From Pithys albifrons albifrons (Eukaryota; Chordata; Aves; Passeriformes; Thamnophilidae): a stretch of 64,000 nt of DNA. A program made the position numbers and the translations under genes. The DNA is taken from positions 15,157,733 to 15,221,732 of the forward strand of contig NC_092473.1 in assembly GCF_047495875.1 (NCBI RefSeq), given 5' to 3'. Under the pieces are notes generated by a model. It did no database searches, was not told the DNA's origin, and was given only the letters and a program-made list of their open reading frames with translations. Position 1 is the first letter of the stretch, and each line of letters begins with the position of its first letter. Below are positions 30,363 to 52,939 of this stretch, in pieces.

Positions 30363-30364
30363 TT

Positions 30365-30600: not shown

Positions 30601-32154
30601 TAGCCAAGGGCTCTCAAAGCAAAGGGATTTAAGGCAGCAAATGGTGGGCTGGGAGCAACTGGTGATGTCCTGGGAGAAGAGGAACTGAGATGGTCCAGGT
30701 GGGCTTCTGGACCAAGCCTGGAGAACATGAACTGACCTGGAAAAGGTCCTTGTCCCTCCCCAGTCCCGGGACAGGTTTTGGCCAAGGAGTGAAGCCCTCA
30801 GAGGGCTCTGAGTTGGTCCCTCCCTGTTCCCCTCTGGGTGTTGTTTGCCAGCCAAGAGCTTATTCCAGAGGGACATCCCGAGGAGCAGAGGGATGAAATG
30901 CCAGCTGGGATTGGTTTTCCTTTGCCCCTCAGCACCCCCAGGCTGTGACTGGATCACAGCCAGCAGCAGGAGGGGTGGAATTCTCTGGGACATCTCCAGA
31001 CCTCCCCACCAACCACGGAGGGTGTTGGGGGAAGAGCAGCCTCTCCTTGTGGAGCTGCTGGTGGTGGGAGGGAAGAAAAGCTCCAAGGAGTTGAGCAGGA
31101 TTGATTTTTAATTGATTTATTTCGCTTTTTAATTTTATTTTTTTTTTAATTTAACTCGTTCCACACATCCCTGCCAAGACAAGGAGATGAGACTGGGAAG
31201 TTTGGGATGAGATTCCAGCAGATGGTGGATGGAGAGGGAGGAAAAGCTGCCCCGAGTCGGGTTTGGTTCCCAATTTAAGCCCCAATCAAACAGAACCCCA
31301 AGAATTATAAAACTCCTCCTTCCCACATGCACCTGAGGAATCAAATTCCATCTCAGAGACAAGCCAAGCCCATTTTCCAATAAGGAATAAACCCAGGGCT
31401 TAGGAAATGCACACACACAAAGCAGAGGAAACTTAAAAGCATTTTCCCAGCACAGGAGTTGAAAATAAAAAGGTGACCTTTAAAGCAGGTGGGGAGAGTT
31501 CATTTGGAGGGTAAAATAAAGATAAAAAAAAGCAGCTGGGTTAATCCAAAAAGCCCTACCTGGCAGCCACTCCTTCTGCCATAGTTTAGTTCTCTTTTTA
31601 AGAGGGGTTTCAGCCTCAGGATTTCAAAAAATTCATTCCCTTTTAGTGCTGGAAGAGATGACAGAGCTGGAACAGGCTCTGCTTTCACATCCTGCTCGGG
31701 GAGCAGCCAGAGGTGGGGGCTGTTCCCTGTCCTGCCCTCACTCAGCCCTTTCATCCAGGACTTTCAGCTCCTGGGGGTGTCCAGGCAGGGAAAGGGAAGA
31801 GGTGGAACATCTCCCCCTCTTCTGTCCCCCAGAGGTCACCCCCAGAGCTGAGGGAAGTGTGTTAAACCCAGCCAGGATTGGCACAGAGATGCCCTCCTGG
31901 AGCTCTGCTGCCCACCAGGGGTGTGGGGGCTCTGCTTTAACCCTGGGCTGGCCATGAGGAGCTTTGGGCTCATCCCTTTCAGAGCTGGGTGTTGGTGGAG
32001 GAGCAACAGCCCCACCCTGGGGCAGCTCTTGGTGTTTGGAAGGACCTGGAGCTTTGCTGGACCCAACAGACCCATTTTCAATCTCCTTTTTCCCATCAGA
32101 GCTCCATCCCCATCCCCCAAACCCACAGCTGGGAGTTCAGTGCAGGAACAAGGT
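30601..32154. other. Unique sequence of duplicon A, no gene seen
   Basis: No tandem repeats apart from a T-rich run at 31,130-31,150. Translations on both strands match nothing I know. Confidence 0.45.
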
Positions 32155-33295
32155 GTGGACTCTCCATCCCTGGGGGTGTCCAAGGGATGTCCAGGTGACA
32201 CAAAGGGACACTTGGAGGTTGGGAATGATCAGTTCCAATCTCTGGGCTCTCCTCTCACCCCACCTGGAGCTGCCACCTGGAGCTCCTCTCACCCCACCTG
32301 GAGCTGTGGGTGGTTGGGAGGCAGGGCCATGGGGACATTCAGGGGCAGAGAGGGACCAAAACTGGCATTCCAAGGATTTCTCTGACTCTGCCTCATCAGG
32401 ATGGATTTCAGGAACTCCCCAAGCTCGTGGGAAGTGCAAGGAAAGAACCTCAAGAGCTGCCACTGCAGGTGCTGCCACCCCTGGGAGTGTCCAAGGGATG
32501 TCCAGGTGACACAGGGACACTTTGGAGTTGGGAATGATCAGCTCCAATCCCTGTGCTCTCCTCTCACCCCACCTGGAGCTGCCACATCCTCTGTGCTGTG
32601 GGTGGTTGGTAGGCAGGGCCAAGGGGACATTCAGGGGCAGAGAGGGACCAAAACTGGCATTCCAAGGATTTCTCTGAAAGAACCTCAAGAGCTGCAACTG
32701 CAGGTGCTGCCACCCATGGGAGTGTCCAAGGGATGTCCAGGTGACACACAGGAACACTTTGGAGTTGGGAATGATCAGCTCCAATATCTGGGCTCTCCTC
32801 TCACCCCACCTGGAGCTGTGGGTGGTTGGGAGGCAGGGCCATGGGGACATTCAGGGGCAGAGAGGCACCAAAACTGGCATTCCAAGGATTTCTCTGACTC
32901 TGCCTCATCAGGATGGATTTCAGGAACTCCCCAAGCTCGTGGGAAGTGCAAGGAAAGAACGTCAAGAGCTGCCACTGCAGGTGCTCCCACCCCTGGGAAT
33001 GTCCAAGGGATGTCCAGGTGACACAAAGGGACAGTTTGGAGTTGGGAATGATCAGCTCCAATCTCTGGGCTCTCCTCTCACCCCACCTGGAGCTGCCACA
33101 TCCTCTGTGCTGTGGGTGGTTGGGAGGCAGGGCCAAGGGGACATTCAGGGGCAGAGAGGGACCAAAACTGGCATTCCAAGGATTTCTCTGACTCTGCCTC
33201 ATCAGGATGGATTTCAGGAACTCCCCAAGCTCGTGGGAAATGCAAGGAAAGAACCTCAAGAGCTGCCACTGGAGGTGCTGCCACCCCTGGGGGGG
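32155..33295 (+). repeat. Long-unit tandem repeat, copy A (about four units of 240-320 bp)
   Basis: Units contain GTGTCCAAGGGATGTCCAGG, GGGAATGATCAGCTCCAATC, GTGGGTGGTTGGGAGGCAGG and CTCATCAGGATGGATTTCAG. One unit (near 32,600-32,700) lacks the CTCATCAGG segment. Confidence 0.92.
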
Positions 33296-33324
33296 TCTCA
33301 CCAAACACTCTCTGCTCCCAGATC

Positions 33325-33442
33325 CCAGCCTGGGAAATAAAGCTGGGAATTAATGCTGGGAAATAAAGCTGGGAATTAATGCTGGGAAATAAAGCTGGGA
33401 ATTAATGCTGGGAAATAAAGCTTGGAAATAAAGCTGGGAATG
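33325..33442 (+). repeat. 26-bp short array, copy A
   Basis: Four units of GGGAAATAAAGCTGGGAATT plus AATGCT; matched by a shorter version at 56,306-56,396. Confidence 0.9.
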
Positions 33443-34374
33443 GGGATTTAATCCAAGAGTGACTCCCCTTAGGCTTTGTTTCCCTTGTGAAATAACTGCT
33501 TTTTTAAAAAGAAATGCTAATAATGCTACCAATAATTAATGTTCTCTGAGTCTCTCAGTTCCAGGGAGGGGTGATTAGATCCAAACAGCAGAGATGTTTC
33601 TGATCTCAGCGCTGTGAGAAGATACAGAAACAAAGCCCATGTTCTCAGACGGCCTCTGCTCTCAGTCCTTTGCCAACCCTGGGAGCTCCTGAGGCTGAAA
33701 CGTTTATTGTGTGTTTATTTCTCAGGCTGAAACTGCAACACTTTGTTGGTGTCAAACCAAAACCTTCCCCTCCCGAACTCTTTAATCTCTTTCTTGCTGT
33801 GCCCTGTGGAGTTTGTCAGAACCAGGAGCTGCCTGATGGAAAATAAATGTCTGTATTTCCTCAGCTCTGAATGAATTCCCCACATTCCTCCCTGTCTGTC
33901 ACGTGGGTGAATGTCCTGGGTTGTTTTCTTTTCTCTCCATCACCCTGTTGAGGTGCTGCTGGGGTGTGAAGGCAGCAGATAAAACTGATAATGATGCTTA
34001 ATTAATAAAGCAATACGAAATAATGATTGAATTAAAACAAATTGATGGAGCCAAATTCTAACAGGTGGGTCCCCACGAGGAGAGTTTGTCCTTCTGTTCC
34101 AAAGAACTTCAGCTCAGGATTTCTTGTGCTGGTCCAGGTTGGATGTGGAGAAGCAGGAACTGCTCCAGGTGAGGGAAGTTTCCTGTTCCAAGGTTTGTAG
34201 CCAAGAGAATTCCCAATCTATTCCACGGCAAAGGGTCGGAGCCCAAAACATTCCTGTCCTTTCCTTCCTCTCTGTTTTCTCAGCTGAGCTTGAAGAGCTG
34301 TTAATAATTTAATATTTATTCAATTCCTTGAGTGGCAGGAGGGCTTTGAAACCAGGCCAGCCCTGGAGCAGGAA
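33443..34374. other. Unique sequence of duplicon A, no gene seen
   Basis: Non-repetitive and AT-rich; nearly unchanged in copy B (56,397-57,327). No exon recognised. Confidence 0.45.
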
Positions 34375-34468
34375 GGGAATTCCAGCCATTGACTGAAGAG
34401 CTGGACTCGATGATCCTTGTGGGTCCCTTCCAGCTCAGGATAGTCTGGGATTCTGGGATTCTGGGAAT
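34375..34468 (+). mobile_element. SINE/CR1 tail fragment, copy A
   Basis: CCATTGACTGAAGAGCTGGA, then GATGATCCTTGTGGGTCCC, ending in three GGGATTCT-type tail repeats. This is the TguSINE1-like 3' tail without its tRNA head. Confidence 0.7.
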
Positions 34469-34499
34469 GTGCCACGTGCCAGTGGATTGTGGATCTTTT

Positions 34500-35650
34500 T
34501 TGGGCAGAGTTTCCTTGTTGGAGAACATTTCAGGAAGAATTTCATCATGGGAAAGGTTGTGAAATGCTGGAAGGGGCTGCCCAGGGAGGTTTGGAGTGCC
34601 CAGCCCTGGAGGTGCCCAAGGAAGGACTGGTCGTGGCACTCAGAGCTCTGGGCTGGGGGACAAGGTGGGCATCAGGCACAGGGTGGGCTCTGGGGCCTGG
34701 GAGGGCTTTGCCAAGGTGGGCATCGGGCACAGGGTGGGCTCCATGGGCTGGAAGAGCTTTGCCAAGGTGGGCATCGGGCACAGGGTGGGCTCCATGGGCT
34801 GAGAGGGCTTTTCCAAGGTGGGCATCGGGCACAGGGTGGGCTCCAGGGGCTGTCAGGGCTTTGCCAAGGTGGGCATCGGGCACAGGGTGGGCTCCATGGG
34901 CTGAGAGGGCTTTGCCAAGGTGGGCATCGGGCACAGGGTGGGCTCCAGGGGCTGGGAGGGCTTTGCCAAGGTGGGCATCGGGCACAGGGTGGGCTCCAGG
35001 GGCTGGCAGGGCTTTGCCAAGGTGGGCATCGGCCACAGGGTGGGCTCTGTGGGCTGGGAGGGCTTTGTCAAGGTGGGCATCGGGCACAGGGTGGGCTCCA
35101 TGGGCTGGGAGGGCTTTGCCAAGGTGGGCATCGAGCACAGGGTGGGCTCCAGGGGCTGGCAGGGCTTTGCCAAGGTGGGCATCGGGCACAGGGTGGGCTC
35201 CATGGGCTGGAAGAGCTTTGCCAAGGTGGGCATCGGGCACAGGGTGGGCTCCATGGGCTGTCAGGGCTTTGCCAAGGTGGGCATCGGGCACAGGGTGGGT
35301 TCCAGGGGCTGGGAGGGCTTTTCCAAGGTGGGCATCGGGCACAGGGTGGGCTCCGTGGGCTGGCAGGGCTTTGCCAAGGTGGGCATCAGGCACAGGGTGG
35401 GCTGCATGGGCTGTCAGGGCTTTGCCAAGGTGGGCATCGGGCACAGGGTGGGCTCCATGGGCTGGGAGGGCTTTGCCAAGGTGGGCATCGGGCACAGGGT
35501 GGGCTCTGTGGGTTGGGAGAGCTTTGCCAAGGTGGGCATCGGGCACAGGGTGGGCTCCAGGAGCTGGCAGGGCTTTGCCAAGGTGGGCATCGGGCACAGG
35601 GTGGGCTCCAGGGGCTGGCAGGGCTTTGCCAACCTTCATAATTATAATTT
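34500..35650 (+). mobile_element. CR1 3' end enlarged by a 51-bp array, copy A
   Basis: The left part (CATTTCAGGAAGAATTTCAT, GGGGCTGCCCAGGGAGG, GGTGCCCAAGGAAGGACTGG) is normal CR1. The terminal GACAAGGTGG segment is then repeated about 19 times, and the last unit ends GGCTTTGCCAACCTTCATAA, like a CR1 terminus. Confidence 0.82.
34665..35632 (+). repeat. 51-bp minisatellite, copy A (about 19 units)
   Basis: Unit GGGCTTTGCCAAGGTGGGCA plus TCGGGCACAGGGTGGGCTCC; positions after CTCC vary (ATGGGCTGG, AGGGGCTGG, GTGGGCTG). Copy B has about 10 units. Confidence 0.95.
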
Positions 35651-35983
35651 CCCAGTCACCTTTAGGGCCCCAAACTTGAAGCCTTGGGCACGTCCCAGCG
35701 TTGCCCTCAGTGACCCACCTTCACACCTGAGTGGGCTGTGCCAAGATGTCACTAATAAAAGCTCTTTTGAAACCTTCAGACACCCCAAAAAAAAATTAAT
35801 AACAAATTGTTGGAGGCTTTATTTAAAAAAAAAAATAATTCTTTTCCACAGCAAGGACTTTCACTGTGAATGGCTCAGCAGGGCCTTTCCTGGAAATTTT
35901 ATTGTACTTTAAAATGAAATATTCGCACAGAGCAACGAGCAGAGAAGGGCACGGGCAGGACAAGGAGGAGGAGGAGGAGGATG
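35651..35983. other. Unique sequence of duplicon A, no gene seen
   Basis: It contains a T/A-rich run at 35,818-35,840 and a GGA-rich run at 35,955-35,985. Confidence 0.45.
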
Positions 35984-36280
35984 GGCTGGGGTGGCACAGG
36001 AAAGCTGAGAGACAGGACAGGGGAATGGCTCCCACTGGAATAGGGAAGGGTTAGGTGGGATATTGGGAAGGAATTGCTGGCTGGGAGGGTGGGCAGGGCC
36101 TGGCACAGGTGCCCAGAGAAGCTGTGGCTGCCCCAGCCCTGGGAGTGTCCCAGGCCAGGTTGAACAGGGCTTGGAGCACCCTGGGCTGGTGGGAGGTGTC
36201 CCTGCCCATGGCAGGGGTGGCACTGGATGGGCTTTGAGGTCCCTTCAAACCCAAACCATTCTGTGATTCTGTGGCTCAGA
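35984..36280 (+). mobile_element. CR1 3' end, copy A unit 1
   Basis: Plus-strand CR1 ending CCATTCTGTGATTCTGTGG; the first of three CR1s in tandem in duplicon A. Confidence 0.85.
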
Positions 36281-36706
36281 AAACATCCTCCCATTTCACT
36301 GCCCCTTCCAGAATAACAGGAAATCCAGAGGGATCCAATTCCCTCTCCTTGATTTCACCCTGGAGAAGAGAAGGCTCCAGGGACACCTTGGAGCCCCTTT
36401 GAGTGCCTAAAGAGGCTCCAAAAGAACCAGAGAAAGATTTTGGACAAGACTCTGGAGGAACAGGCCAAGGGGAATGGCTTCCCACTGACACTGGGATATT
36501 GGGAAGGAATTGCTGGCTGGGAGGGTGGGCAGGCCCTGGCACAGGTGCCCAGAGAAGCTGTGGCTGCCCCAGCCCTGGCAGGGCCAGGCTGGACAGGGCT
36601 TGGAGCACCCTGGGGTGGTGGGAGGTGTCCCTGCCCATGGCAGGGGTGGCACTGGGTGGGCTTTGTGGTCCCTTCAAACCCAAACCATTCTGTGATTCTG
36701 TGGCTC
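36281..36706 (+). mobile_element. CR1 composite unit 2, copy A (extra relative to B)
   Basis: A unit of about 426 bp: spacer GAAAACATCCTCCCATTTCA, then a CR1 body. Copy B has only two CR1s here, so one composite unit was gained in A or lost in B. This unit has a short deletion (CCAGCCCTGGCAGGGCCAGG). Confidence 0.83.
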
Positions 36707-37128
36707 AGAAAACATCCTCCCATTTCACTGCCCCTTCCAGAATAACAGGAAATCCAGAGGGATCCAATTCCCTCTCCTTGATTTCACCCTGGAGAAGAGA
36801 AGGCTCCAGGGACACCTTGGAGCCACTTTGAGTGCCTAAAGAGGCTCCAAAAGAACCAGAGAAAGATTTTGGACAAGACTCTGGAGGAACAGGCCAAGGG
36901 GAATGGCTCCCCACTGACACTGGGATATTGGGAAGGAATTGCTGGCTGGGAGGGTGGGCAGGGCCTGGCACAGGTGCCCAGAGAAGCTGTGGCTGCCCCA
37001 GCCCTGGGAGTGTCCCAGGCCAGGCTGGACAGGGCTTGGAGCACCCTGGGCTGGTGGGAGGTGTTGGGGTTAGAACTGGATCATCTTCAAGGTCCTTTCC
37101 AACCCAACCCATTCCACGATTCCATGAA
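36707..37128 (+). mobile_element. CR1 composite unit 3, copy A
   Basis: Same composite, ending with a CR1 3' terminus of a different type (GTTGGGGTTAGAACTGGATC, CCATTCCACGATTCCATG). Confidence 0.83.
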
Positions 37129-37331
37129 AGGACAGACAGGGCAGAGGGAGGCAAAGGCAGAGTGCCAGTCCAGTGGCTCCCCAGTGCCCCCCAGTGCCCC
37201 CAGTGCTGCTGTTTAACTGGGGGCCGCTGCAACATCTGCAGGAGGGAAAGGGAAGGGCCACAGTGCCCTCTGTTGGCACCAGCGCCATCCCTGCCGGAGG
37301 GCTCGGAACAGCAGCTGCGCCTCCAGCCTCT
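37129..37331. other. Unique sequence upstream of the pyrimidine array
   Basis: No gene recognised; the copy B counterpart is 59,186-59,396. Confidence 0.5.
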
Positions 37332-37563
37332 CCCTTTCCTTTTCCTTTTCCTTTTCCTTTTCCTTTTCCTTTTCCTTTTCCTTTTCCTTTTCCTTTTCTC
37401 CTTTTCCTTTTCCTTTTCCTTTTCTCCTTTTCCTTTCCCTTTTTCTTTTCCTTTCCCTCTTTTTCCTTTTTTTCTTTCCCCTTTTTCTTTTTCCCTTTCC
37501 CATTTCCCCTTTTCTTTTCCCTTTTTTTTCCTTCCCCTTTTCCTTTTTCCTTTCCCCTTTCTC
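37332..37563 (+). repeat. (CCTTTT)n pyrimidine tract, copy A
   Basis: A hexanucleotide CCTTTT array degenerates to mixed C/T tracts. It is purely pyrimidine over long runs, with triplex potential, and ends about 435 bases upstream of the TEKT4 ATG. Confidence 0.95.
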
Positions 37564-37589
37564 CTTGCCTTGCCTTCTCTTGACTTTCC

Positions 37590-37745
37590 TCCAGGATCTC
37601 ATGGCTCCAGGATCCTATAACTCCAGTATCCTATGATTCCAGGCTCCTGTTATTCCAGGATTCTATAATTCCAGTATCCTATGATTCCAGGATCCTGTTA
37701 TTCCAGGATCCTACAGTTCCAGGATCCTGTGATTCCCAGCCCCCT
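37590..37745 (+). repeat. 16-bp array near the TEKT4 promoter, copy A
   Basis: About nine units of ATGATTCCAGGATCCT-type sequence (variants TATAACTCCAGTATCC, TGTTATTCCAGGATCC). Confidence 0.88.
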
Positions 37746-37801
37746 ATGGCTCCAGGTCCCTGGGCCCTCCCGCCGCCATGACACCTCCACGTTGGCTTCC
37801 C

Positions 37802-37815
37802 GTTGCCATGGCAAC
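37802..37815 (+). promoter_or_regulatory. RFX X-box 1 (copy A)
   Basis: GTTGCCATGGCAAC is a perfect inverted repeat matching the X-box pattern (GTNRCC, short spacer, RGYAAC) bound by RFX2/RFX3, the regulators of cilia genes. It lies 183 bases upstream of the ATG. Confidence 0.8.
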
Positions 37816-37944
37816 AAGCCGCGTGGAGGCGGGCACGGGCGGCAGCATCCACCAATCAAAGACGGTCTTAGGGCAAACCCTCACTTTGATTGGTTGTTAT
37901 AGATGTCCGTTAACCGAGGAGCCGGCTCTCCATTGGTCGGCGCC

Positions 37945-37958
37945 GTTGCCGCGGTAAC
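37945..37958 (+). promoter_or_regulatory. RFX X-box 2 (copy A)
   Basis: GTTGCCGCGGTAAC matches the X-box pattern with both half-sites intact, 40 bases upstream of the ATG and next to an ATTGG box. The spacing between the two X-boxes is 143 bases and is the same in copy B. Confidence 0.75.
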
Positions 37959-37997
37959 GGGAGGACGCGGCGCAGCGGCGGCCGCGGAGGCTCCGCC

Positions 37998-38516
37998 ATG
38001 GCCCTGCCCGAGGAGCCGGTGCCGCCGGCCGTGCCCTCCTGCCCCCTGCCCGGCAAGATCTGCCATGTGGCCGGCCAGGAGCGTCCCGGCTCGTGCTGCG
38101 GCATGGCCATGGCCGGTTTCCGCACCTCCAAGTACCAGCTGCCCGAGTGGCACCGCCGCAACGCGCGGGTGTTCAACCAGGCCTGCACCGTGGGCGAGGA
38201 GGCGCAGCGCGGCCGGGCCGAGGCCGGGCACCTCCGCAGACACGCGGCCGCCTGTGCCCAGCGCGCCCAGCAGCACTCCAAGAGCACCCTCGGGCAGCGC
38301 CTGCAGGACATCCACTTCTGGAGGGTGGAGCTGCAGAAGGAGGTCATGGAGCTGGACGCAGAGACCAACCTGCTGGCGGCCCAGAAGCTGCGGCTGGAGC
38401 GGGCGCTCGATGCCACCGAGGTGCCCTACGGAGTGGTCACCGACAACCTGCAGTGCCGGGAGAGGAGGCAGCCCCCGGACCTGGTGATCGACGAGGTGGA
38501 GAGGCAGCTGCTGAAG
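37998..38516 (+). CDS. TEKT4: TEKT4 copy A exon 1 (codons 1-173)
   Basis: This exon begins at the ATG in GCCATGG and ends at codon AAG, followed by donor GTGGGT. It is CpG-rich. It encodes the proline-rich N-terminus and the first coiled-coil half up to EVERQLLK. Read-through would reach a TGA four codons past the donor, so this donor must be used for full-length protein. Confidence 0.95.
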
Positions 38517-41500
38517 GTGGGTGGGCACTGAGGGCTGGGGTGGGCACTGAGGGCTGGGGTGGGCACTGAGGGCTGGGGTGGGCACTGAGAGCTGGGGATG
38601 GAGATGGAGAGGCAGCTGCTGAAGGTGGGTGGGCACTGAGGGCTGGGGTGGGCACTGAGGGCTGGGGACGGCACTGAGGGCTGGGGTGGGCACTGAGGGC
38701 TGGGGATGGCACTGAGGGCTGGGGTGGGCACTGAGGGCTGGGGTGGGCACTGAGAGCTGGGGATGGAGATGGAGAGGCAGCTGCTGGAGGTGGGTGGGCA
38801 CTGAGGGCTGGGGTGGGCACTGAGAGCTGGGGATGGATGAGGTGGAGAGGCAGCTGCTGAAGGTGGGTGGGCACTGAGGGCTGGGGTGGGCACTGAGGGC
38901 TGGGGATGGCACTGAGAGCTGGGGATGGCACTGAGGGCTGCGGTGGGCACTGAGGGCTGGGGAATGGCACTGAGAGCTGGGGATGGCACTGAGAGCTGGG
39001 GATGGAGATGGAGAGGCAGCTGCTGAAGGTGGGTGGGCACTGAGAGCTGGGGTGGGCACTGAGGGCTGGGGATGGATGAGGTGGAGAGGCAGCTGCTGAA
39101 GGTGGGTGGGCACTGAGGGCTGGGGCGGGCACTGAGAGCTGGGGTGGGCACTGAGGGCTGGGGATGGATGAGGTGGAGAGGCAGCTGCTGAAGGTGGGTG
39201 GGCACTGAGGGCTGGGGTGGGCACTGAGGGCTGGGGCGGGCACTGAGGGCTGGGGTGGGCACTGAGAGCTGGGGTGGGCACTGAGGGCTGGGGATGGATG
39301 AGGTGGAGAGGCAGCTGCTGAAGGTGGGTGGGCACTGAGGGCTGGGGCGGGCACTGAGGGCTGGGGTGGGCACTGAGGACTGGGGTGGGCACTGAGGGCT
39401 GGGGATGGCACTGAGGGCTGGGGTGGGCACTGAGGGCTGGGGATGGCACTGAGAGCTGGGGATGGATGAGGTGGAGAGGCAGCTGCTGAAGGTGGGTGGG
39501 CACTGAGGGCTGGGGTGGGCACTGAGGGCTGGGGTGGGCACTGAGGGCTGGGGATGGCACTGAGAGCTGGGGATGGCACTGAGGGCTGCGGTGGGCACTG
39601 AGGGCTGGGGAATGGCACTGAGAGCTGGGGATGGCACTGAGAGCTGGGGATGGAGATGGAGAGGCAGCTGCTGAAGGTGGGTGGGCACTGAGGGCTGGGG
39701 ATGGAGCAGATGGAGAGGCAGCTGCTGAAAGTGGGTGGGCACTGAGGGATGGGGTGGGCACTGAGAGCTGGGGATGGCACTGAGGGCTGGGGATGGATGA
39801 GGTGGAGAGGCAGCTGCTGAAGGTGGGTAGGCACTGAGGGCTGGGGCGGGCACTGAGAGCTGGGGTGGGCACTGAGGGCTGGGGATGGATGAGGTGGAGA
39901 GGCAGCTGCTGAAGGTGGGTGGGCACTGAGGGCTGGGGCGGGCACTGAGGGCTGGGGTGGGCACTGAGGGCTGGATATCACAGGAGTCTCCCTGGGTTTG
40001 TTTTCCTTTAGGAAGCTGATCTCATCAGGAATATTCGGGATCTTCTGAAAAGGACTATAATTCAAGCCACCAACCAGATCCGGTAGGACATTTCCCAGGA
40101 TATTCCAGCAGCTCATTCCTGGTCTGTGGGAATAGAGGAGAAAAGATCTCACCAGGGCCAGGCTCAGATGGGAGTTCCATTCAAACTGAAAAGGTTAATG
40201 TTGGAACGGGAGGATTCTCCAGTGGAATAAAGTGGATTTAGGTTTCTAATCCTGGTTTTCCAGCATGTGTTTGATTTGGTTTCCAACCCAACCTCAGCAT
40301 TCCCTGGATACCTCCCTCCCTTCCTGCACCTTGGGAAAAGGAATTTCTCCTTTTCCAGTTGAGTTTTTGCCACCAGATGTCAGTGTGACCTTTAAACATG
40401 GACCTTCTGTGTCAACGTGGGCGTTCATTGCCTTTCCAGAGGGCTGTTGGCTGGAATTTCTTCCAAACCCTTTGGAAAGATGTTCCCTGTCTGCAAATAT
40501 AAAGGAGTTAATTGCTTGAAACCTTGATATTTTAATTTTATTTTTTTAAATCTCCTTCTATTCTACCAGATAGAATGAAAAGCTGTTTGTGGAAAGAATG
40601 GCTGTAAATGCAGAATAATGTCAAGTCGTTCTGTTGCATCAGTCAGAGTAGGAGAGGAGACTATTTTGCTTTTTATAATTGTTTTGGGATTATTTCAATC
40701 CTATTTAATCCCAATTTAATCCCATTGGCCAGTAAAGTATTGATTCCCTGGGTGAGAGTGACACCTGCTGTTACCAGCTGATAACACTCAAGTCCTGTCT
40801 AATTGAAATCATTTCAATTAATTGGGAGATGGGTGACTCTAATTGGAAACAAAGCAGGGATTTTAATCGGAATATCCCTGACCTTTTATCTTGCAAGGCC
40901 AGTTTGCACTCTCTGCATGGAAGGAGGGAGAGGAGGGCTCAGGGAATGTTGGGGCCACTTCATGGAGGTCTTCCATGTGAGATCTGCCCAACATTGTAGT
41001 GAAAGTGGAGGGTGATTCTTCTGGTGGCACTGCCTGATGTCCTCTGGTCGGCAAACCCACCTGCTGCTGCTGTGAAAAAATCCTCTCAATTTTAGGATTA
41101 TTGTGGGAAATCCAGAGTGCAGAAACTCCTCTGCCTCAGGTCATGGAGCTCTGAGCCTTCAGCAGGGGCAGCACTGGGCTGGAGGTCTGGGACAGTGGGA
41201 ATCATGGAATGGTTTGGGGTGGAAAGGACCATAAAGATCATCTATTCCATCCCCTCCCATGGGCAGGGACACCTCCCACCAGCCCAGGGTGCTCCAAGCC
41301 CTGTCCAGCCTGGCCTGGGACACTCCCAGGGCTGGGGCAGCCACAGCTTCTCTGGGCACCTGTGCCAGGCCCTGCCCACCCTCCCAGCCAGCAATTCCTT
41401 CCCAATATCCCACCTAACCCTGCCCTCTGGCAGTGGGAAGCCATTCCCTGTGCCCTGTCCCTCCATCCCTTGTCCCCAGTCCCTCTCCAGCTCTCCTGAA

Positions 41501-44500
41501 GCCCCTTCAGGCCCTGCCAGGGGCTCTCAGGTGTCCCTGGAGCCTTCTCTTCTCCAGGTGACACCCCAGCTCTCCCAGCCTGGCTCCAGCCCAGAGGGAT
41601 CCAGAATTCTGGAATGGTTTGGGTTGGAAGGGACCCCAAAGCCCACCCAGTGCCACCCCTCCATGGACAGGGACACCTCCCACCAGCCCAGGTTGCTCCA
41701 AGCCCTGTCCAGCCTGGCCTGGGACACTCCCAGGGCTGGGGCAGCCACAGCTTCTCTGGGCACCTGTGCCAGGGCCTGCCCACCCTCCCAGCCAAGAATT
41801 GCTTCCCAATATCCCACCTAAATCAGTCTTACTGTCCTTCCAGGAGATGGATGTGGGACAGAGGGGTTGGTGGGATTTTCCAGACAGAAGGGAATGTTTA
41901 TGGTGAAGACACAGGCCCAGACTGAGGTTCACACACCTGTGGTGGGGCTGTGGGTTGTCTGGTGTCCCTCTAACCGTGTGTGGATTCAACTTCCCAGCTC
42001 CAACCGGATTCAGAAGGAGTTCTGTGAGCTGGACTGGTCAGACAAGGTGGAGACCTATCACATCGATGACAAGTGTGTGAGCTACAACAACGACAGCACC
42101 AACATCCAGTCCCACCCCAGCTCTGTGAAGTTTGAGGAGAAGTGAGTAACTCTTGGGACCACCCTGGGACACACAGCTCAGCCTGGGAGAATCATAGAAT
42201 CATCCCTTGTCCCAACTCCCTCTCCAGCTCTCCTGGAGCCCCTTTAGCACTGGAAGGGGCTCTCAGGTCTCCCTGGAGCCTTCTCTTCTCCAGGCTGAAC
42301 ATCCCCAACACACTCAGCCTATCAAGATCTTGTATCTTTTTATTTCAAGGTAGACACAGACTGTAAATCCTGAATATACTGAAGTGTTTGCTATGACTGA
42401 ACTGCTGATTCTTGCACAAAAAGTGTGTGTGTCCTTATTGATCCTTGGCAGTGTTGGCTAAAGATGGAAGAGTTTTTCCTTATTTTTGGTCATTTATTGC
42501 TTTCCTCAGAAGCCACAGGAATGAGAGATTATGAATGTGTGAAAGGATTAATCTTCTTCCTTCATGCCAAGTCTACAGTGCAACAACAAGCAGAGCTCGG
42601 CGACACCTTTGCAGGACAGAACCAGCCTCAGGTTGTCTTCTCGAGGGCAAGATTCCCATTTTCTTCCATTCCCCTCTTCCTCCAGTGCCTCCACACCGAA
42701 GACCTGGGCCCAGTTCAGCCATGACAACATTTCCAGTGCAGAGCAGGAGAAACTGGCCTCGGTGCAGCTCCGTTCCCTCATCCAGAACATCATCCACGAC
42801 GCGGCCGAGGACCTGCGGCTGCAGCGCGCCGCCGTCAACCAGGCCTTCCACAACCACTGCAGGGAGCTGGATGATGCCAAGCTCAAGCTGGAGCAGCACC
42901 TGGAGCAGGTGAGCTCTCTGGGGGAGGTCACTCTGTGTGTCTTAGTCCAAGGTGGGTGTCCAATGCTGGTTTGGGGCAGCTCAGGGGGTGGGAAGAGACT
43001 TCGGAGCTGGGTTGGGGCTCCAGTTGGGCAGTTTGGTTGTGATGGGCTGTGGTGGGTTAAAGGTGAACCAGCAGGAGAAATGAACCCAACACACAAAAAA
43101 TTATAAGTCAGAGTTATGATTTAATAACAGTATTACAAAGCAGAGAAATCAGAATTAAGTGTAAGATGCAGGAGATGTCCTTGGAGCAGAGAATCCCAAC
43201 CATCTCTCCCAGGGCCAAACCAGATCTCAGCACAACCAAAAGCTCCTGTTGCCCCCACCTCTGCCCCAAGGGGTGGGCTCATGGTCAGGCCATGGAGTTC
43301 CACTGTTGGATGTGGAGCATCAGCACCACGAGCTTGGTGGAGCTTTGTGATGGGTTAAAGATGAACCAGCAGGAGAAATAAACCCCACACACAAAAAATT
43401 ATAAGTCAGAGTTATGATTTAATAACAGTATTACAAAGCAGAGAAATCAGAATTAAGTGTAAGATGCAGGAGATGTCCTTGGAGTCCTTGGAGCAGAGAA
43501 TCCCAACCATCTCTCCCAGGGCCAAACCAGAACTCAGCACAACCAAAAGCTCCTGTTGCCCCCACCTCTGCCCCAAGGGGTGGGCTCATGGTCAGGCCAT
43601 GGAGTTCCACTGTTGGATGTGGAGCATCAGCACCACAAGCTTGGTGGAGCTTTGTGATGGGTTAAAGGTAAAAGCAGGAAGAGAAATGGACCCAACATGA
43701 AAGAGATTATAAGTCAGAGTTATAATTTAATAACAACATTACAATAAATGCAGTGGCACAAAGAGAAATTGGGTTTAACCCCCAAGCCCAGCAGTGTAAC
43801 CCACCCCCTGGGGCACAAACACAGGGGGGTTTGGTGGCCCCTGTGCTGAGCCCCACGTGGTTCCTCCGAGGCCAAAGGAAAAGGAAGGGACAAACCTGTT
43901 GGTGCAGATGATGGCACAGTCTGGGCAGAGTGGTGGGCTCCTCCTGTCCAGGGTCTGCTCCTCCTCTGGATCCAATGAGTGGTTCCCCAAGTCCCCAAAC
44001 CCCTGAGATTCCATCCCCTCAGGTTTGGGTGGGAGCCCCCAGTGCCTCCCCCAGGGCAGGGAGTTCCACACTGGGGGATCTGACTCTGGCAGTCAGGGGG
44101 GATTTTGGAATTGTTGCTGGCCCATGGGCAGAGCTGAGCCCTCAGGTGGGTGTGGAGGTGCCAAGGACTCCCTGCAGGGCAGTTCTCCCAGCTCCTCTGC
44201 CAGGCTTCTTTCCCAGCCAGCTCCCAGCCTGAGGGCTCAGCTGTGCCCTGGGCAGCTGCTGCCAATGGGCCATTGGGAACAGTTCCTGGGAAATGGCACA
44301 GAGGGTGGACAATCCACAGCTTTGGTCACACCCACACAGGAACAAACTGGTCCCAGTTTGCTGAATTAGGACATGGACTAAGTTAAGAACAGCTAAGTGG
44401 GCTTTAATTTCTGTCTGTGTCAGTGGTTAGGAGGGAGAAGCAATTCAGGATTTCCTGTCTTTCCATTTCCTTCAGAAATCCATGGATTTCCAAGCTGATC

Positions 44501-47081
44501 AGCATCTCTCCATGTGATTTGAAATACCCTTTTTTTTTCTTGGATAAAATTTCCAATTAAAATCAAAGAAAGCTGAAATTTACAATTGAAAGCACTTCCT
44601 GGAGGTGGGAAGTGTTGTGGGACATGGAAGGGGTTTGGAACAGGCTGCAGAATATTTTCTGCTGCTTTTCAGACCCAGCATTGACTGTCAGAGCAACAGT
44701 GAAAATGCAGAAGTCCAAACCCCCTCTTTGTCATTCCATTTCTCCTGAATTCTGGTCAAACAGGAGGACAAACCCACCCCAACTTCAGCAGGTCCATGAG
44801 CAGATGTTCAGAGGGGCAGAGGGAAAGACCTTTTGGGAACAGAGAAGGACCTTTTGGAGACAGGGAAAGACCTTTTGGAGACAGGGAAAGACCTTTTGGA
44901 GACAGGGAAAGACCTTTTGGAAACAGGGAAGGACCTTTTGGAAACAGGGAAAGACCTTTTGGAAACAGGGAAAGACCTTTTGGAAACAGGGAAATACCTT
45001 TTGAAACAGATCCTGAGATCAGCTCAGTTGATTAAAACTTGGTTGTAACAATGCCAAGGTCATGGGTTCAATCCCCTCTGTGGGCCATTGACTGAAGAGT
45101 TGGACTGAATGATCCTTGGGGGTCCTTCCAACTCAGAACAGTCTGTGAGTCTCTGAGTTCTTGCTCTTGGGTGTCCTCCCCAGACCCTCAAGGACATTGG
45201 AGAGGAGGAAGCCAACATTGTTGCTCTCAAACAAGCCATCAGGGACAAGGAGACCTACCTGAAGGTGGCCCAGACCAGGCTCTACGACAGGTCCTTCAGG
45301 CCCAACGTGGAGCTGTGCAAGGACGAGCCCCAGTTCAGGTGATGCCACCACTTCTCCAAGGGACACTGTCCCACCTGTGTGGGGACTCCCAGCCCTGAGC
45401 TTTGGCTGCTCGTTAGGTGGGGTGTGAGTCACAAATGAGGCTGAAATCACTGCCAGGAGTAGTTTAGTATAAATATTATTGTTATTATAGTTCATTTTTC
45501 ATATTTTATATTGTGTAAAGGATTATTAATATAACATAAAATATATGAAATATAATTAATATACTTAATAGAGTCTCCCTAAATCAGTTCTTGAGGCTCC
45601 CTAAATCAGTTCTTGGGACTCCCTAAATCAGTTCTTGGGACTCCCTAAATCAGTTCTTGGGACTCCCTAAAGCAGTTCTGGGGACTCCCTAAATTAATCC
45701 TTGGGACTTCCTAAATCAATTATTGGATCTCCCTAAATCAGTTCCTGGGACTCCCTAAATCAGTTCCTGGGGCTTCCTAACCCATGGAAGGGTAGGAAAG
45801 TTGACTTTGCTTTTCCTGACCTTCTCTGAGACCTTCCTGACCTTCCCTGAGCTCCTTCCTCCACCTTCCCTGAGCTCCTTCCTCCACCTTCCCTGAGCTC
45901 CTTCCTCCACCTTCCCTGAGCTCCTTCCTCCACCTTCCCTGAGCTCCTTCCTCCACCTTCCCTGAGCTCCTTCCTGACCTTCCCTGAGCTCCTTCCTCAC
46001 CTTCCCTGAGCTCCTTCCTCACCTTCCCTGAGCTCCTTCCTCACCTTCCCTGAGCTCCTTCCTGGCCTTCCCTGAGCTCCTTCCTGACCTTCTCTGAGCT
46101 CCTTCCTGACCTTCCCTGAGCTGCTTCCTGACCTTCCCCTGAGCTGCTTCCTGACCTTCCCCTGAGCTGCTTCCTGACCTTCTCTGAGTCCTTCCTGACC
46201 TTCTCTGTGTCCTTCCTGACCTTCTCTGTGTCCTTCCTGACCTTCTCTGAGCTCCTTCCTGACCTTCTCTGAGCTCCTTCCTGACCTTCTCTGAGCTCCT
46301 TCCTGACCTTCTCTGAGCTCCTTCCTGACCTTCTCTGTGTCCTTCCTGACCTTCCCTGAGCTCCTTCCTGACCTTCTCTGAGCTCCTTCCTGACCTTCTC
46401 TGAGCTCCTTCCTGACCTTCTCTGAGCTCCTTCCTCCACCTTCCCTGAGCTCCTTCCTCCACCTTCCCTGAGCTCCTTCCTCCACCTTCCCTGAGCTCCT
46501 TCCTCCACCTTCCCTGAGCTCCTTCCTCCACCTTCCCTGAGCTCCTTCCTCCACCTTCCCTGAGCTCCTTCCTCCACCTTCCCTGAGCTCCTTCCTCCAC
46601 CTTCCCTGAGCTCCTTCCTCCACCTTCCCTGAGCTCCTTCCTCCACCTTCCCTGAGCTCCTTCCTCCACCTTCCCTGAGCTCCTTCCTCCACCTTCCCTG
46701 AGCTCCTTCCTCCACCTTCCCTGAGCTCCTTCCTCCACCTTCCCTGAGCTCCTCCTGAACAAAGTCCTGATCCTGCAGCTGCTGCTCTTTGTCCTCATTC
46801 CTGTTCACGTCTCTTTGTGCCTCTCCTGCTCTTCCTCATCCCTTCCTGTCATCCCCTTCAGGTTGGTGAGCGAAGTTGAAGAGCTCACAGTGTTCCTGGA
46901 AGCCCTGAAGAGAAAACTGATGGAGTCAGAGCAGTGCCTGAAGCACCTGGAGGAGACCAGGATGAAGCTGGAGAAGGAGATCGCGGTGAAGGCCAACAGC
47001 ATCTCCATCGACAGGGAGAAGTGCTTGCCCTTCCGCATCCACTACCCCGTGGATCTGGAACTGGCCAGCTACAAACAGTGA
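37998..47081 (+). CDS. TEKT4: Tektin-4, copy A, complete six-exon gene
   Basis: Tektins are coiled-coil filament proteins that run inside the A-tubule of axonemal doublet microtubules. Tektin-4 is a ciliary and sperm-flagellar member (family knowledge). I assembled six coding exons: 37998-38516, 40012-40082, 41998-42141, 42686-42908, 45184-45338 and 46862-47081. All introns are GT-AG and the frame stays open to TGA at 47079. The product is 443 residues, close to the ~435 of mammalian tektin-4. Seen in the protein: the N-terminal block FRTSKY at about residues 41-46, the block [10 protein letters not shown] followed by [10 protein letters not shown] near 141-160, and the tektin signature RPNVELCKD at 358-366 (usual form ends CRD). 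Heptad-rich helices fill the rest and there is no signal peptide or membrane segment. The start codon has a strong Kozak context (G at -3, G at +4). Introns 1 and 5 are filled by minisatellites, intron 4 by an LTR-like repeat, a minisatellite and a SINE. Identification as tektin-4 rather than another tektin rests on remembered similarity along the whole length. Confidence 0.95.
38517..39975 (+). repeat. TEKT4 intron 1 array, copy A (amplified exon end plus 20-mer)
   Basis: Nearly all of intron 1 is made of GGGCACTGAGGGCTGGGGTG (variants GGGATGGCACTGAG). Interspersed are about 12 copies of GGTGGAGAGGCAGCTGCTG followed by AAGGTGGGT, the last exon 1 codons with the 5' splice site. Confidence 0.95.
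40012..40082 (+). CDS. TEKT4: TEKT4 copy A exon 2 (codons 174-197)
   Basis: This is a 71-base exon after acceptor TTTTCCTTTAG, encoding [19 protein letters not shown] and following residues. It ends two bases into codon 197, at donor GTAGGA. Confidence 0.93.
40083..41202. other. TEKT4 intron 2, unique part
   Basis: About 1.1 kb of intron without tandem repeats, about 1% different from copy B by eye. Confidence 0.7.
41203..41590 (-). mobile_element. CR1 in TEKT4 intron 2
   Basis: Minus-strand CR1, tail GAATGGTTTGGGGTGGAAAG, through CTTCTCTTCTCCAGGTGACA. Antisense to the gene. Confidence 0.86.
41598..41830 (-). mobile_element. Second CR1 in TEKT4 intron 2
   Basis: Minus-strand CR1 3' fragment ending near ATATCCCACCTAAATCAGTC, about 170 bases before exon 3. 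Confidence 0.85.
41998..42141 (+). CDS. TEKT4: TEKT4 copy A exon 3 (codons 197-245)
   Basis: This 144-base exon follows acceptor TTCCCAG and completes the split Arg codon as CGC. It encodes the block with [16 protein letters not shown], matching the conserved DWSDK region of tektin-4. It ends with two bases of an Asn codon at donor GTGAGT. Confidence 0.94.
42188..42325 (-). mobile_element. CR1 fragment in TEKT4 intron 3
   Basis: Tail AATCATAGAATC, then CTCCCTCTCCAGCTCTCCTG and CTTCTCCAGGCTGAACATCC. The window's final bases (about 63,988-64,000) are the start of its copy B counterpart. Confidence 0.78.
42326..42685. other. Rest of TEKT4 intron 3
   Basis: Unique AT-rich intron sequence; nothing recognised apart from the exon 4 acceptor at its end. 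Confidence 0.6.
42686..42908 (+). CDS. TEKT4: TEKT4 copy A exon 4 (codons 245-319)
   Basis: This is a 223-base exon after acceptor CTTCCTCCAG. It completes codon 245 and encodes [14 protein letters not shown], then a coiled coil ending LEQHLEQ, with donor GTGAGC. Only copy A supplies this exon in the window. Confidence 0.94.
43036..43775 (-). repeat. About 305-bp tandem repeat in TEKT4 intron 4, LTR-like
   Basis: Two full units and a partial one share GTTAAAGGTGAACCAGCAGG, AAAATTATAAGTCAGAGTTA and ATGGAGTTCCACTGTTGGAT. The minus-strand reading ends with an ATTAAA signal, then a short stretch ending near CA, which resembles the 3' end of an avian endogenous retroviral LTR. I see no retroviral genes. 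Confidence 0.6.
43776..44820. other. TEKT4 intron 4, middle part
   Basis: 43,776-44,345 may belong to the same LTR-like element, since composition and context continue. 44,345-44,820 is unique AT-rich intron. No gene recognised. Confidence 0.4.
44821..45008 (+). repeat. 21-bp array in TEKT4 intron 4
   Basis: About nine units of GACCTTTTGGAAACAGGGAA (variant GGAGACAGG). Confidence 0.93.
45020..45160 (+). mobile_element. TguSINE1-like SINE in TEKT4 intron 4
   Basis: Plus strand: head AGCTCAGTTGATTAAAACTT, B-box GGTCATGGGTTCAATCCC, tail AGAGTTGGACTGAATGATCC and CAGTCTGTGAGTCTCTGAG. It ends about 23 bases before exon 5. Confidence 0.8.
45184..45338 (+). CDS. TEKT4: TEKT4 copy A exon 5 with tektin signature (codons 320-371)
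   Basis: This is a 155-base exon after acceptor GTCCTCCCCAG. It encodes [19 protein letters not shown] and then the tektin signature nonapeptide RPNVELCKD (residues 358-366). It ends two bases into an Arg codon at donor GTGATG. A SINE ends only about 20 bases upstream of the exon. Confidence 0.95.
45339..45570. other. TEKT4 intron 5, AT-rich start
   Basis: Includes a TATAAATATT-rich stretch at 45,465-45,560; nothing else recognised. Confidence 0.5.
45571..45782 (+). repeat. 22-bp array in TEKT4 intron 5
   Basis: About nine units of CTCCCTAAATCAGTTCTTGG plus GA, with variants near the right end. Confidence 0.93.
45815..46755 (+). repeat. 22/23-bp array in TEKT4 intron 5
   Basis: About 42 units of ACCTTCCCTGAGCTCCTTCC plus TCC or TG. 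TCTCTGAG variants are confined to the middle (46,080-46,440), flanked by homogeneous CCCTGAG blocks. Confidence 0.95.
46862..47081 (+). CDS. TEKT4: TEKT4 copy A exon 6 and stop (codons 371-443)
   Basis: This is the final coding exon, after acceptor ATCCCCTTCAG. It encodes a leucine-heptad coiled coil ([15 protein letters not shown]), then the C-terminus ending ELASYKQ, with TGA at 47079-47081. The 940-bp intron 5 minisatellite stops about 105 bases upstream. Confidence 0.95.
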
Positions 47082-47182
47082 CTTTCTGCAGACCTGGGGG
47101 GGGATGGAGCTGCTTCTTTTCTGTTCACCATTGGCAAGGGTGCAAAAAAAGGTTAGGAAAAATCTAGAATCTTTGATACAAA

Positions 47183-47188
47183 AATAAA
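47183..47188 (+). terminator. Probable TEKT4 poly(A) signal
   Basis: AATAAA lies 102 bases after the TEKT4 stop codon, a usual distance for a short 3' UTR. No transcript data are available here to confirm use. Confidence 0.65.
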
Positions 47189-47214
47189 TGGATTTTATTT
47201 ACGGAATTGCGGCG

Positions 47215-48190
47215 TCCGTTGGGGTTTGTTCCGCTTGAAGTCAAGTGGGAACTGAAATCCTGCCTGAAAATGAACATGGCCTTGAGTCTCACCTTAACAC
47301 TTCTGGAGAACCTGTAATATTTGTGCATAATGTGTCACATTTGGGGGGTTTCACCCCAATAATTAAATACTGTGAGTGAATATTGAGTGGGAATAATAAT
47401 GTATTCCACTTAAACTTAAGTGGGAACTGAAATCCTGCCTGAAAATGAACATGGCTTTGAGTCTCACCTTAAAACTTCTGGAGAACCTCTATATGGTGAG
47501 TTTGAAACAGGTTAAAGAGAGTTCATTATATCTGCAATGTATCATTTGTGCATAATCTGTTATATTTGGGGGGTTTACCCCAATAATTAAATACTGTGAG
47601 TGAATATTGAGTGGGAATAATAATTTGTTCTGCTTAAATTTAAGTGGGAACTGAAATCCTGCCTTAAAATGAACATGGCTTTGAGTCTGACCTTAAGACT
47701 TCTGGAGAATCTCTATATGGTGAGTTTAAACCAGCTTAAAGGTAGTTTATTATCTCTGCAATGTATCATTTGTGCATAATGTGTCATATTTGGGGGTTTC
47801 ACCTCAATAATGTGAGTATTTAGTGGGAATAATAACAATTTGTTCCACTTAAACTTAAGTGGGAACTGAAATCCTGCCTTAAAATGATCATGGCTTTGAG
47901 TCTGACCTTAAGACTTCTTGACAACCTTTATATGGTGAGTTTAAACCAGCTTAAAGGTACTTCATTATCTCTGCAATGTATCATTTGTGCATAATGTGTC
48001 ATATTTGGGGGTTTCACCTTAATAATGTGAGTATTTAGTGGGATTAATAACAATATTCACTGTGTTTTATTCTACTTAAATTTAAGTGGAAACTTAAGTC
48101 CTGCCTTAAAATGAACATGGCTTTGAGTCTTCCCTTAAAACTTCTGGAGAACCTCTACATGGTGAGTTTGAAACCCCTTAAAGGTACTTC
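47215..48190 (+). repeat. Five-unit tandem repeat downstream of TEKT4
   Basis: Units of about 175-227 bp start near 47,229, 47,404, 47,626, 47,843 and 48,070. They share GGGAACTGAAATCCTGCCT and GTATCATTTGTGCATAATGT. Two units carry the perfect palindrome CCACTTAAACTTAAGTGG. Confidence 0.92.
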
Positions 48191-48214
48191 ATGGCATCTG
48201 TTTTGATGCTTCCA

Positions 48215-52896: not shown

Positions 52897-52939
52897 CTAA
52901 GACGTGTTTGCTTTTCCTTCTCCTCACCTTTTCTTTGTA

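What the first reader, a model, noticed from the sequence alone, without database searches (positions are those of the whole stretch)
38517..39975. TEKT4 intron 1 is an array of amplified exon-1 ends with 5' splice sites
The last codons of exon 1 (GAGGTGGAGAGGCAGCTGCTG, trimmed here to GGTGGAGAGGCAGCTGCTG, then AAG) and the donor GTGGGT are repeated about 12 times through intron 1. They are separated by GGGCACTGAGGGCTGGGGTG units; most copies keep the donor, a few have GGAGG or AAAGTG. A real splice site is thus followed by a ladder of near-identical decoys. The unit seems to have been born from the exon/intron boundary itself. Use of any decoy would read through VGGH and a TGA just past the true donor, truncating the protein, so selection should act on donor choice or on exon-end splicing enhancers.
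Basis: partly seen in the sequence, partly recalled or inferred. Interest (0 to 1): 0.78.

Follow-up and report, generated by a model that had tools for sequence, protein, structure and literature searches.

The report
Repeated splice-site copies in TEKT4
In a South American antbird, the end of the first exon of a cilia and sperm-tail gene has been copied again and again into the neighbouring intron, splice signal included, making a natural test of how cells pick the right splice site; this kind of copying was recently reported in chicken, so it is a new example of a known thing.

Summary
TEKT4 intron 1 (38517-40011) contains 12 copies of the exon-1 end plus donor; all 12 keep GTGGGT. A second intact TEKT4, 22 kb downstream, has its own ladder of 9 (true donor at 60594). 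The genome matches Pithys albifrons, an antbird. The array reduces to a 54-bp tandem duplication of the last 36 nt of exon 1 plus the first 18 nt of intron 1 (51/54 identical); the commonest 19-bp spacer is that unit minus one 35-bp deletion.

This is "exon stuttering", described in chicken in 2026 (PMC12954441). It passes that paper's screen, but on a 17.5-Mb contig, not a dot-sized chromosome. Amphioxus "mirages" and human F7 intron 7 are older parallels; in F7 the first donor wins.

The decoys show no decay: by computed U1 pairing, 11 of 12 and 8 of 9 equal or exceed the true donor. All 120 TEKT4 proteins aligned (of 450 found) join exons 1 and 2 without insert; no decoy product was found among 40 hits. 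Most likely: a fast-turning, neutral minisatellite spliced from its first donor. No RNA was available. Whether the two copies are paralogues or unpurged haplotypes is open.

The parts
37998..38516 (+). TEKT4 exon 1, first copy (173 codons, phase 0)
   Evidence: homology to solved TEKT4
38517..39974 (+). Array in intron 1, first copy: 54 units between the first and last GGCACT, 12 of them long (54 or 51 nt) with the exon-1 end and a donor, 42 of 19-20 nt; begins at the true donor
38517..38522 (+). True donor GTGGGT of exon 1, first copy
38605..38630 (+). Decoy 1 (51-nt type), AAG|GTGGGT
38770..38795 (+). Decoy 2 (51-nt type), GAG|GTGGGT
38843..38868 (+). Decoy 3 (54-nt type)
39009..39034 (+). 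Decoy 4 (51-nt type)
39082..39107 (+). Decoy 5 (54-nt type)
39174..39199 (+). Decoy 6 (54-nt type)
39304..39329 (+). Decoy 7 (54-nt type)
39472..39497 (+). Decoy 8 (54-nt type)
39657..39682 (+). Decoy 9 (51-nt type)
39711..39736 (+). Decoy 10 (54-nt type), AAA|GTGGGT, weak U1 pairing
39803..39828 (+). Decoy 11 (54-nt type), followed by AGG
39895..39920 (+). Decoy 12 (54-nt type)
40010..40011 (+). Acceptor of intron 1; the only AG in intron 1 preceded by at least 9 of 14 pyrimidines
40012..40082 (+). TEKT4 exon 2, first copy
41998..42141 (+). TEKT4 exon 3, first copy
42686..42908 (+). TEKT4 exon 4, first copy
45184..45338 (+). TEKT4 exon 5, first copy
46862..47081 (+). TEKT4 exon 6 with stop, first copy
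60075..60593 (+). TEKT4 exon 1, second copy (2 synonymous differences from the first)
60594..61777 (+). Array in intron 1, second copy: 45 units, 9 long; decoy donors +1 at 60819, 60889, 61000, 61089, 61254, 61327, 61553, 61626, 61737
61815..61885 (+). TEKT4 exon 2, second copy
63797..63940 (+). TEKT4 exon 3, second copy; exons 4-6 lie past the window end (64485-68935 in extended coordinates)
27279..50250 (+). First block of a ~23-kb tandem duplication holding TEKT4
50476..64000 (+). Second block of the duplication (runs on to ~73524 beyond the window)

Best explanation
This is an exon-stuttering minisatellite. A 54-bp segment spanning the exon-1/intron-1 junction of TEKT4 (36 nt of exon, 18 nt of intron) was tandemly duplicated. 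A derivative lost 35 bp between GGG repeats and gave the 19-bp spacer. Both forms then expanded and reshuffled by slippage, unequal exchange or conversion in a G-rich, G-quadruplex-prone strand. The array starts at the true donor, so the true donor is unit 0 of the repeat. In RNA the first (cap-proximal) donor most likely wins, because it is met first and sits next to the real exon body. The downstream copies are then silent spares removed with the intron, and occasional decoy use would give a stop four codons on. Shown here: anatomy, unit relationship, computed U1 pairing, the second copy with a differently ordered array. Inferred: the amplification process, neutrality and the choice of the first donor.
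For: 54-nt unit 51/54 identical to exon-36 + intron-18; the commonest 19-mer equals that unit minus one 35-nt deletion. The exon-side 15-mer of the unit matches exon 1 at 12/15; in the 124-kb region 12 positions reach 12/15 or better: the 2 exons, 7 in the first array, 1 in the second array, 2 elsewhere. All 16 exon-intron hits (10 first copy, 6 second) end exactly at the exon border. Intron 1 is 97% tandem repeat. 26 G4 motifs on the + strand and 0 on the other in the first array; shuffles mean 9.6, max 17. Arrays differ between copies: 12 vs 9 decoys, and unit order is no more alike than shuffled (300 of 300 shuffles reach the observed score), while the flank after the array is 98.7% identical. 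Chicken precedent with the same geometry, median exon part 36 bp (PMC12954441). First-donor choice in the closest tested case, F7 intron 7 (PMC6627357 passage). Protein P0001, equal to the second copy, uses the canonical junction.
Against: No RNA data. The record name 'isoform X1' implies at least one other predicted isoform, which I could not see. GGCACTGAGGG arrays without the exon module exist elsewhere in the genome (31, 19, 37 and 5 copies in L003, L004, L005 and L007, both strands counted), so the short motif alone is not proof of a junction origin. The GGAT-ending 19-mer needs a different 35-nt deletion. C16 is not dot-sized (17.46 Mb against 2.5-6.8 Mb in chicken). The unit-order comparison needs exact unit identity and may miss diverged shared blocks.
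Confidence: 0.74

Rival explanations
1. The ladder is functional. Decoy donors compete for U1 or are spliced at a set rate, and the resulting early-stop transcripts are degraded, so array length tunes TEKT4 output in sperm or cilia.
For: 19 of 21 decoys pair with U1 as well as or better than the true donor (computed). Every decoy product would stop after VGGH. Array length differs between copies (intron 1 of 1495 and 1221 bp). A record name with 'isoform X1'. Some public models elsewhere do not join exon 1 to exon 2: P0127 (Lonchura) and P0147 join it to other sequence, and P0135 and P0148 read through the donor.
Against: No decoy product among 40 hits to the 177-aa query. No insert at the junction in the 120 proteins aligned, of 450 found. 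No selective decay or conservation pattern seen. Published parallels report normal splicing.
Confidence: 0.1
2. A G-rich minisatellite of the GGGCACTGAGGGCTGGGG kind already lay in intron 1, and later captured the exon end.
For: Array-like matches on other contigs: 50 match places listed, 47 of them outside the two TEKT4 arrays; GGCACTGAGGG repeats in 4 of the 6 loci inspected.
Against: None of the six loci inspected (L003-L008) carries the exon module GGAGAGGCAGCTGCTG on either strand; AAGGTGGGT and CAGCTGCTG occur once each, in different loci (which corrects the one-strand count). The commonest spacer is exactly the 54-mer minus one deletion, and its CTGGGG matches exon CTGGTG.
Confidence: 0.12
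3. Assembly artefact: the ladder or the second TEKT4 copy is not real; the two copies are two haplotypes left in tandem.
For: 17 of 31 500-bp pieces of the two blocks are at least 97% identical (recounted; several of the lower ones overlap tandem repeats or indels), which overlaps heterozygosity in birds (recalled). One amino-acid difference in 443.
Against: For the ladder: it is present in both copies with different unit order, and the sequence has no N. For the duplication: the block ends lie in copies of one dispersed repeat (from 27279, 50064-50684, 73338-73524), as unequal exchange would leave. The record name 'tektin-4-like' suggests annotators saw two loci (inference).
Confidence: 0.04

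Closest known systems
Exon stuttering (sequence stuttering) of chicken genes, Hron et al. 2026, PMC12954441
   Same: Edge of a coding exon with its splice site copied many times into the adjacent intron; source at the exon border; exon part about 36 nt; repeat-filled intron; exon intact; GC- and G4-rich setting
   Different: Described mainly on chicken dot chromosomes (190 of 236 introns); here an antbird, a 17.46-Mb contig, a gene not named in that paper's main text, and two tandem copies with separate arrays
Human factor VII intron 7 repeats (37 bp, each homologous to the one with the 5' splice site), reviewed in PMC6627357 citing Borensztajn et al. 2006
   Same: [quoted passage not shown] downstream cryptic donors exist
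   Different: Repeat is 37 bp in an internal intron of an unrelated gene; splicing there was measured, here it was not; here 54/51/19-bp mixed units follow exon 1
Amphioxus 'mirages' (Adh3, globin genes), PMC3087553
   Same: Minisatellite-like tandem duplications spanning an exon-intron boundary, many with intact AG/GT signals, length-unstable
   Different: Cephalochordates; units of 10-72 bp (Adh3) and 150-160 bp (globins); donor or acceptor side; 6 and 3 units in the BflGb6 haplotypes

Membership tests
Exon stuttering (Hron et al. [quoted passage not shown]
   12 and 9 copies in intron 1 of the two TEKT4 copies
Exon stuttering (Hron et al. 2026) | Published screen: blastn-short hit of at least 20 nt and at least 42.1 bits in a neighbouring intron | tested here: met
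   First copy 10 hits of >=20 nt, 7 at 48.1 bits and 3 at 40.1; second copy 6 hits, 1 at 48.1 bits, 5 at 40.1. No other exon-intron pair hit. Shuffles: 0 of 100 and 1 of 100 with any hit, max 34.2 bits. BLAST 2.17 and plus strand here, 2.12 in the paper
Exon stuttering (Hron et al. 2026) | Source sequence within 1 base of the exon border (over 90% of their cases) | tested here: met
   16 of 16 hits at distance 0
Exon stuttering (Hron et al. 2026) | Intron heavily covered by simple repeats, coding exon intact | tested here: met
   97.4% and 96.8% coverage; both frames open, 443 aa
Exon stuttering (Hron et al. 2026) | Intron length variable among individuals | tested here: inconclusive
   1495 and 1221 bp in the two copies, but these may be paralogues or alleles
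Exon stuttering (Hron et al. 2026) | Dot-chromosome location (a strong preference, not a requirement: 46 of 236 introns lie elsewhere) | tested here: not met
   Contig of 17.46 Mb against 2.5-6.8 Mb for chicken dots; local repeat coverage is high (25-51% per 10 kb from -19999 to 90000) while 12 sampled 10-kb pieces of C16 range from 0.3% to 53%. Epigenetic marks that define dots were not testable
F7-type donor-repeat intron with first-site choice | Repeats each carry a 5' splice site nearly identical to the true one, true one first | tested here: met
F7-type donor-repeat intron with first-site choice | Only the most upstream site is used | not testable with these tools
   No RNA reads; only indirect protein evidence
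[quoted passage not shown]
   Architecture met, but the organism is a bird: it works like a mirage and is not one by lineage

The most novel reading that the evidence does not exclude
A minisatellite has swallowed a working splice site. The true exon-1 donor is unit 0 of the array and has been pulled to the array's own consensus (GTGGGT, where most related read-through frames continue V-S, most simply GTNAGY), so array turnover writes to, and could buffer or break, TEKT4 splicing; with two gene copies whose ladders differ, this is a running natural experiment on first-donor choice.
Probability: 0.22. Interest if true: 0.68.

Novelty: new member of a known kind. Interest (0 to 1): 0.42.

Why it matters
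It extends exon stuttering, reported mainly for chicken dot chromosomes, to an antbird on a larger chromosome, and the unit can be resolved to base level: a 54-bp junction duplication and a 35-bp deletion. It also gives a ready test of how the spliceosome picks a 5' splice site: 21 downstream donors, 19 of them computed to be as strong as the true one, in two near-identical genes. If decoys prove silent, first-site choice holds under an extreme load. If not, a repeat-length variant would set output of a sperm and cilia gene.

Tried and rejected
The 51-bp arrays at 34661-35632 (and the related arrays at 57615 and 12723) carry AAGGTGGGCA motifs and looked like a second donor ladder. Reading 34300-35800 showed the first one starting in what looks like the tail of a dispersed repeat (recalled resemblance, no search made), with no coding exon recognised by eye, so they were dropped.

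Related arrays on other contigs (L003-L008) were tested as a possible source; none carries the exon module. One search counted one strand only; one search repeated it on both.

Dating the array across passerines by DNA was not possible: I had no other bird genome. As a stand-in I read open frames that run past the exon-1 donor in other species' records. Of 40 hits, 34 run on with LLKV, 4 are joined to exon 2 as usual, and 2 (P0127, P0147) are joined to other sequence. None of the 34 is seen to continue VGGH (three end right after V). I picked the 13 most bird-like by hand (P0121, P0123, P0125, P0126, P0128-P0135, at least 59% identity, and P0148): 11 continue VS, 1 VR and 1 VG. Only P0135 and P0148 carry a species name, so this shows only that the Pithys intron start is not shared in that set.

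A free U1 duplex fold was replaced by a fixed-register score, because the former may shift register.

I ran no further search on isoform X2.

Literature: 9 searches. 'Exon stuttering'/'sequence stuttering' gave one paper, PMC12954441; I read its outline and abstract, sections 7, 9 and 16 in full, section 8 part 1 of 2, and passages. PMC6627357, PMC2423196 and PMC3087553: passages only. All other papers: search listings. Borensztajn et al. 2006: not held, known through the citing passages and recall. The PMC12954441 main text does not name TEKT4; its supplementary list of 115 genes was not seen, so TEKT4 may be in it for chicken.

Full report
Where it is. The window is 64 kb of a 17.46-Mb contig (C16) in a 1.144-Gb genome of 53 contigs. 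A public protein labelled tektin-4-like isoform X1 of Pithys albifrons albifrons, from a contig of the same length, equals the translation of the second TEKT4 copy letter for letter. Pithys albifrons is a passerine of the family Thamnophilidae, a suboscine (recalled).

The gene. TEKT4 has six exons: 37998-38516, 40012-40082, 41998-42141, 42686-42908, 45184-45338 and 46862-47081. They give 443 residues with no break, and all five introns are GT-AG. Solved tektin-4 chains are the best matches for exons 1+2, and the alignment crosses the exon 1/2 junction without a gap. A second complete copy begins at 60075 and ends at 68935 in extended coordinates. It differs by 5 of 1332 coding bases, 4 of them synonymous. 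A genome search with the exon 1+2 peptide listed 5 matches: exon 1 and exon 2 of these two copies, and one other tektin-like match on C19.

The array. Intron 1 of the first copy is 1495 bp, 97.4% of it tandem repeat. Cut at GGCACT it holds 54 units: 12 long ones (54 or 51 nt) and 42 short ones (19-20 nt). The second copy holds 45 units, 9 of them long. Each long unit contains the end of exon 1 and a donor. The 9-mer across the donor is identical to the true one in 10 of 12 and 6 of 9 decoys; the rest are GAG|GTGGGT (1 and 2) and AAA|GTGGGT (1 and 1). Decoy 39492 is identical to the true site over 24 nt upstream and 62 nt downstream of the junction; the other decoys match over less.

How it arose. 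The commonest long type of the first copy is 51/54 identical to the last 36 nt of exon 1 plus the first 18 nt of intron 1. Removing one 35-nt block, bounded by GGG on both sides, turns that 54-mer into the commonest 19-mer; the GGAT-ending 19-mer needs a different 35-nt block. One junction duplication plus deletions of that size therefore account for the main unit types. The exon-side homology beyond the obvious GAGGTGGAG is not chance: 12/15 matches or better occur at 12 positions of the 124-kb region, namely the two exons, 7 in the first array, 1 in the second array and 2 elsewhere. Against this, short GGCACTGAGGG arrays occur elsewhere in the genome (4 of 6 loci inspected), so a pre-existing spacer repeat is kept as a rival. 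The G-rich strand carries 26 non-overlapping G4 motifs in the first array and 19 in the second, with none on the other strand, above composition shuffles (means 9.6 and 8.5, maxima 17 and 13). This fits the replication-trouble idea that the chicken paper offers as speculation.

Turnover. The sequence after the array is 98.7% identical between copies over 2236 columns, yet the unit order of the two arrays is no more alike than after shuffling one of them (300 of 300 shuffles reach the observed score). This used exact unit identity, so it is a coarse test. Variants have spread copy by copy: GATGAGG modules number 7 and 1, GGGGGAG modules 0 and 4, 51-nt modules 4 and 3, and the AAA|GTGGGT module occurs once in each. 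The shared rare modules suggest that the ladder predates the split of the two copies, or of the two haplotypes. Introns 4 and 5, also repeat-rich (39% and 75% in the first copy), differ in length too (2275/2484 and 1523/1369), while introns 2 and 3 hardly differ (1915/1911, 544/544).

Splicing. In fixed-register pairing to U1, the true donor scores -9.3 kcal/mol; the gene's other donors score -5.4, -5.5, -10.0 and -7.4. Of 59 GT dinucleotides in the rest of intron 1 of the first copy, 11 score at least as well as the true donor, and 46 at least as well as the gene's own intron-3 donor (-5.5). In the second copy these are 8 and 42 of 47. The array offers no competing acceptor: the only AG in intron 1 with at least 9 of 14 pyrimidines before it is the true one, in both copies. 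Any decoy would add VGGH and a TGA at 38529 (60606), upstream of five more exons, so nonsense-mediated decay is expected (established knowledge). In protein records, none of the 120 aligned TEKT4 proteins (of 450 found) has an insert at the junction. A search with the 177-aa decoy product found 40 proteins: 34 read through the donor in other species and none is seen to continue VGGH, 4 are joined to exon 2, and 2 (P0127, P0147) are joined to other sequence. This argues weakly for silence; transcripts that decay leave few protein models, and an unseen isoform X2 is implied by the name of P0001. The paper-based parallel is direct: in human F7 intron 7, only the most upstream donor of a run of 37-bp repeats is used normally, and a mutation of the first leads to exon skipping and use of downstream cryptic donors (PMC6627357 passage). 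In amphioxus, the authors report that boundary-spanning repeats do not seem to disturb regular splicing (PMC3087553 passages).

What kind of thing. Hron et al. 2026 (PMC12954441; outline and abstract, sections 7, 9 and 16 in full, section 8 part 1 of 2, plus passages; [quoted passage not shown] copies 1-44, median 4; exon part 20-187 bp, median 36. They state that the copies include the splice donor or acceptor and could create alternative transcripts; the word 'splicing' does not occur in the main text, and I saw no splicing measurement in the parts I read. My rerun of their screen on TEKT4 gives 7 qualifying hits in the first copy and 1 in the second, all at the exon border; five hits in the second copy and three in the first fall just under their bit-score line (40.1 against 42.1). 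So TEKT4 is a member by their criteria. It differs in species and chromosome size.

The duplication. Blocks 27279-50250 and 50476-73524 are near-identical. Copies of one dispersed repeat lie at all three ends, as unequal exchange would leave. Divergence in unique parts is low enough that two unmerged haplotypes cannot be excluded; I put that at 0.35. The main reading does not depend on it.

What is shown and what is not. Shown: anatomy, unit derivation, donor equivalence by computed pairing, family membership by the published screen. Inferred: the amplification mechanism, first-donor choice, neutrality. Not tested: RNA, allele lengths, other suboscines' DNA.

Noticed in passing
27279-50250 and 50476-64000 (to ~73524): ~23-kb tandem duplication carrying two intact TEKT4 genes; block ends lie in copies of one dispersed repeat. 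True duplication or unpurged haplotype not settled.
   Followed up: partly
45575-46753: Intron 5 of TEKT4 (first copy) is 75% tandem repeat (22-23-bp units) and differs in length from the second copy (1523 vs 1369 bp); no exon-derived module found by the screen.
   Followed up: partly
34661-35632, 57615-58127, 12723-13100: 51-bp G-rich arrays containing AAGGTGGGCA-like motifs; the first appears to start in the tail of a dispersed element (34540-34660, recalled resemblance), so perhaps repeats born from a transposon end rather than an exon.
   Followed up: partly
48363-48983 (- strand): Open frame with reverse-transcriptase-like wording (FSKAFDTISHN), probably a LINE fragment (recalled), containing a 31-bp array at 48502-48672.
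   Followed up: no
L003 (C40:642886), L004 (C1:126630910), L005 (C8:2277347): Other arrays with 31, 19 and 37 copies of GGCACTGAGGG but no TEKT4 exon module; this short G-rich motif seems to recur in the genome.
   Followed up: partly
protein P0046 (Chamaea fasciata tektin-4): The end of exon 1 departs sharply from other passerines (LPVHPGQRRLLP for LVIDEVERQLLK); a shifted donor, a mis-model or a decaying gene.
   Followed up: no
proteins P0148 (Cyanistes caeruleus) and P0135 (Callipepla squamata): Public gene models that read through the exon-1 donor of TEKT4 into intron 1.
   Followed up: no
window and flanks: 38.6% of the 64-kb window is tandem repeat by TRF; coverage stays at 25-51% per 10 kb from -19999 to 90000 and falls to 14% over 90001-100000 and 0% in the last 4 kb fetched.
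   Followed up: partly
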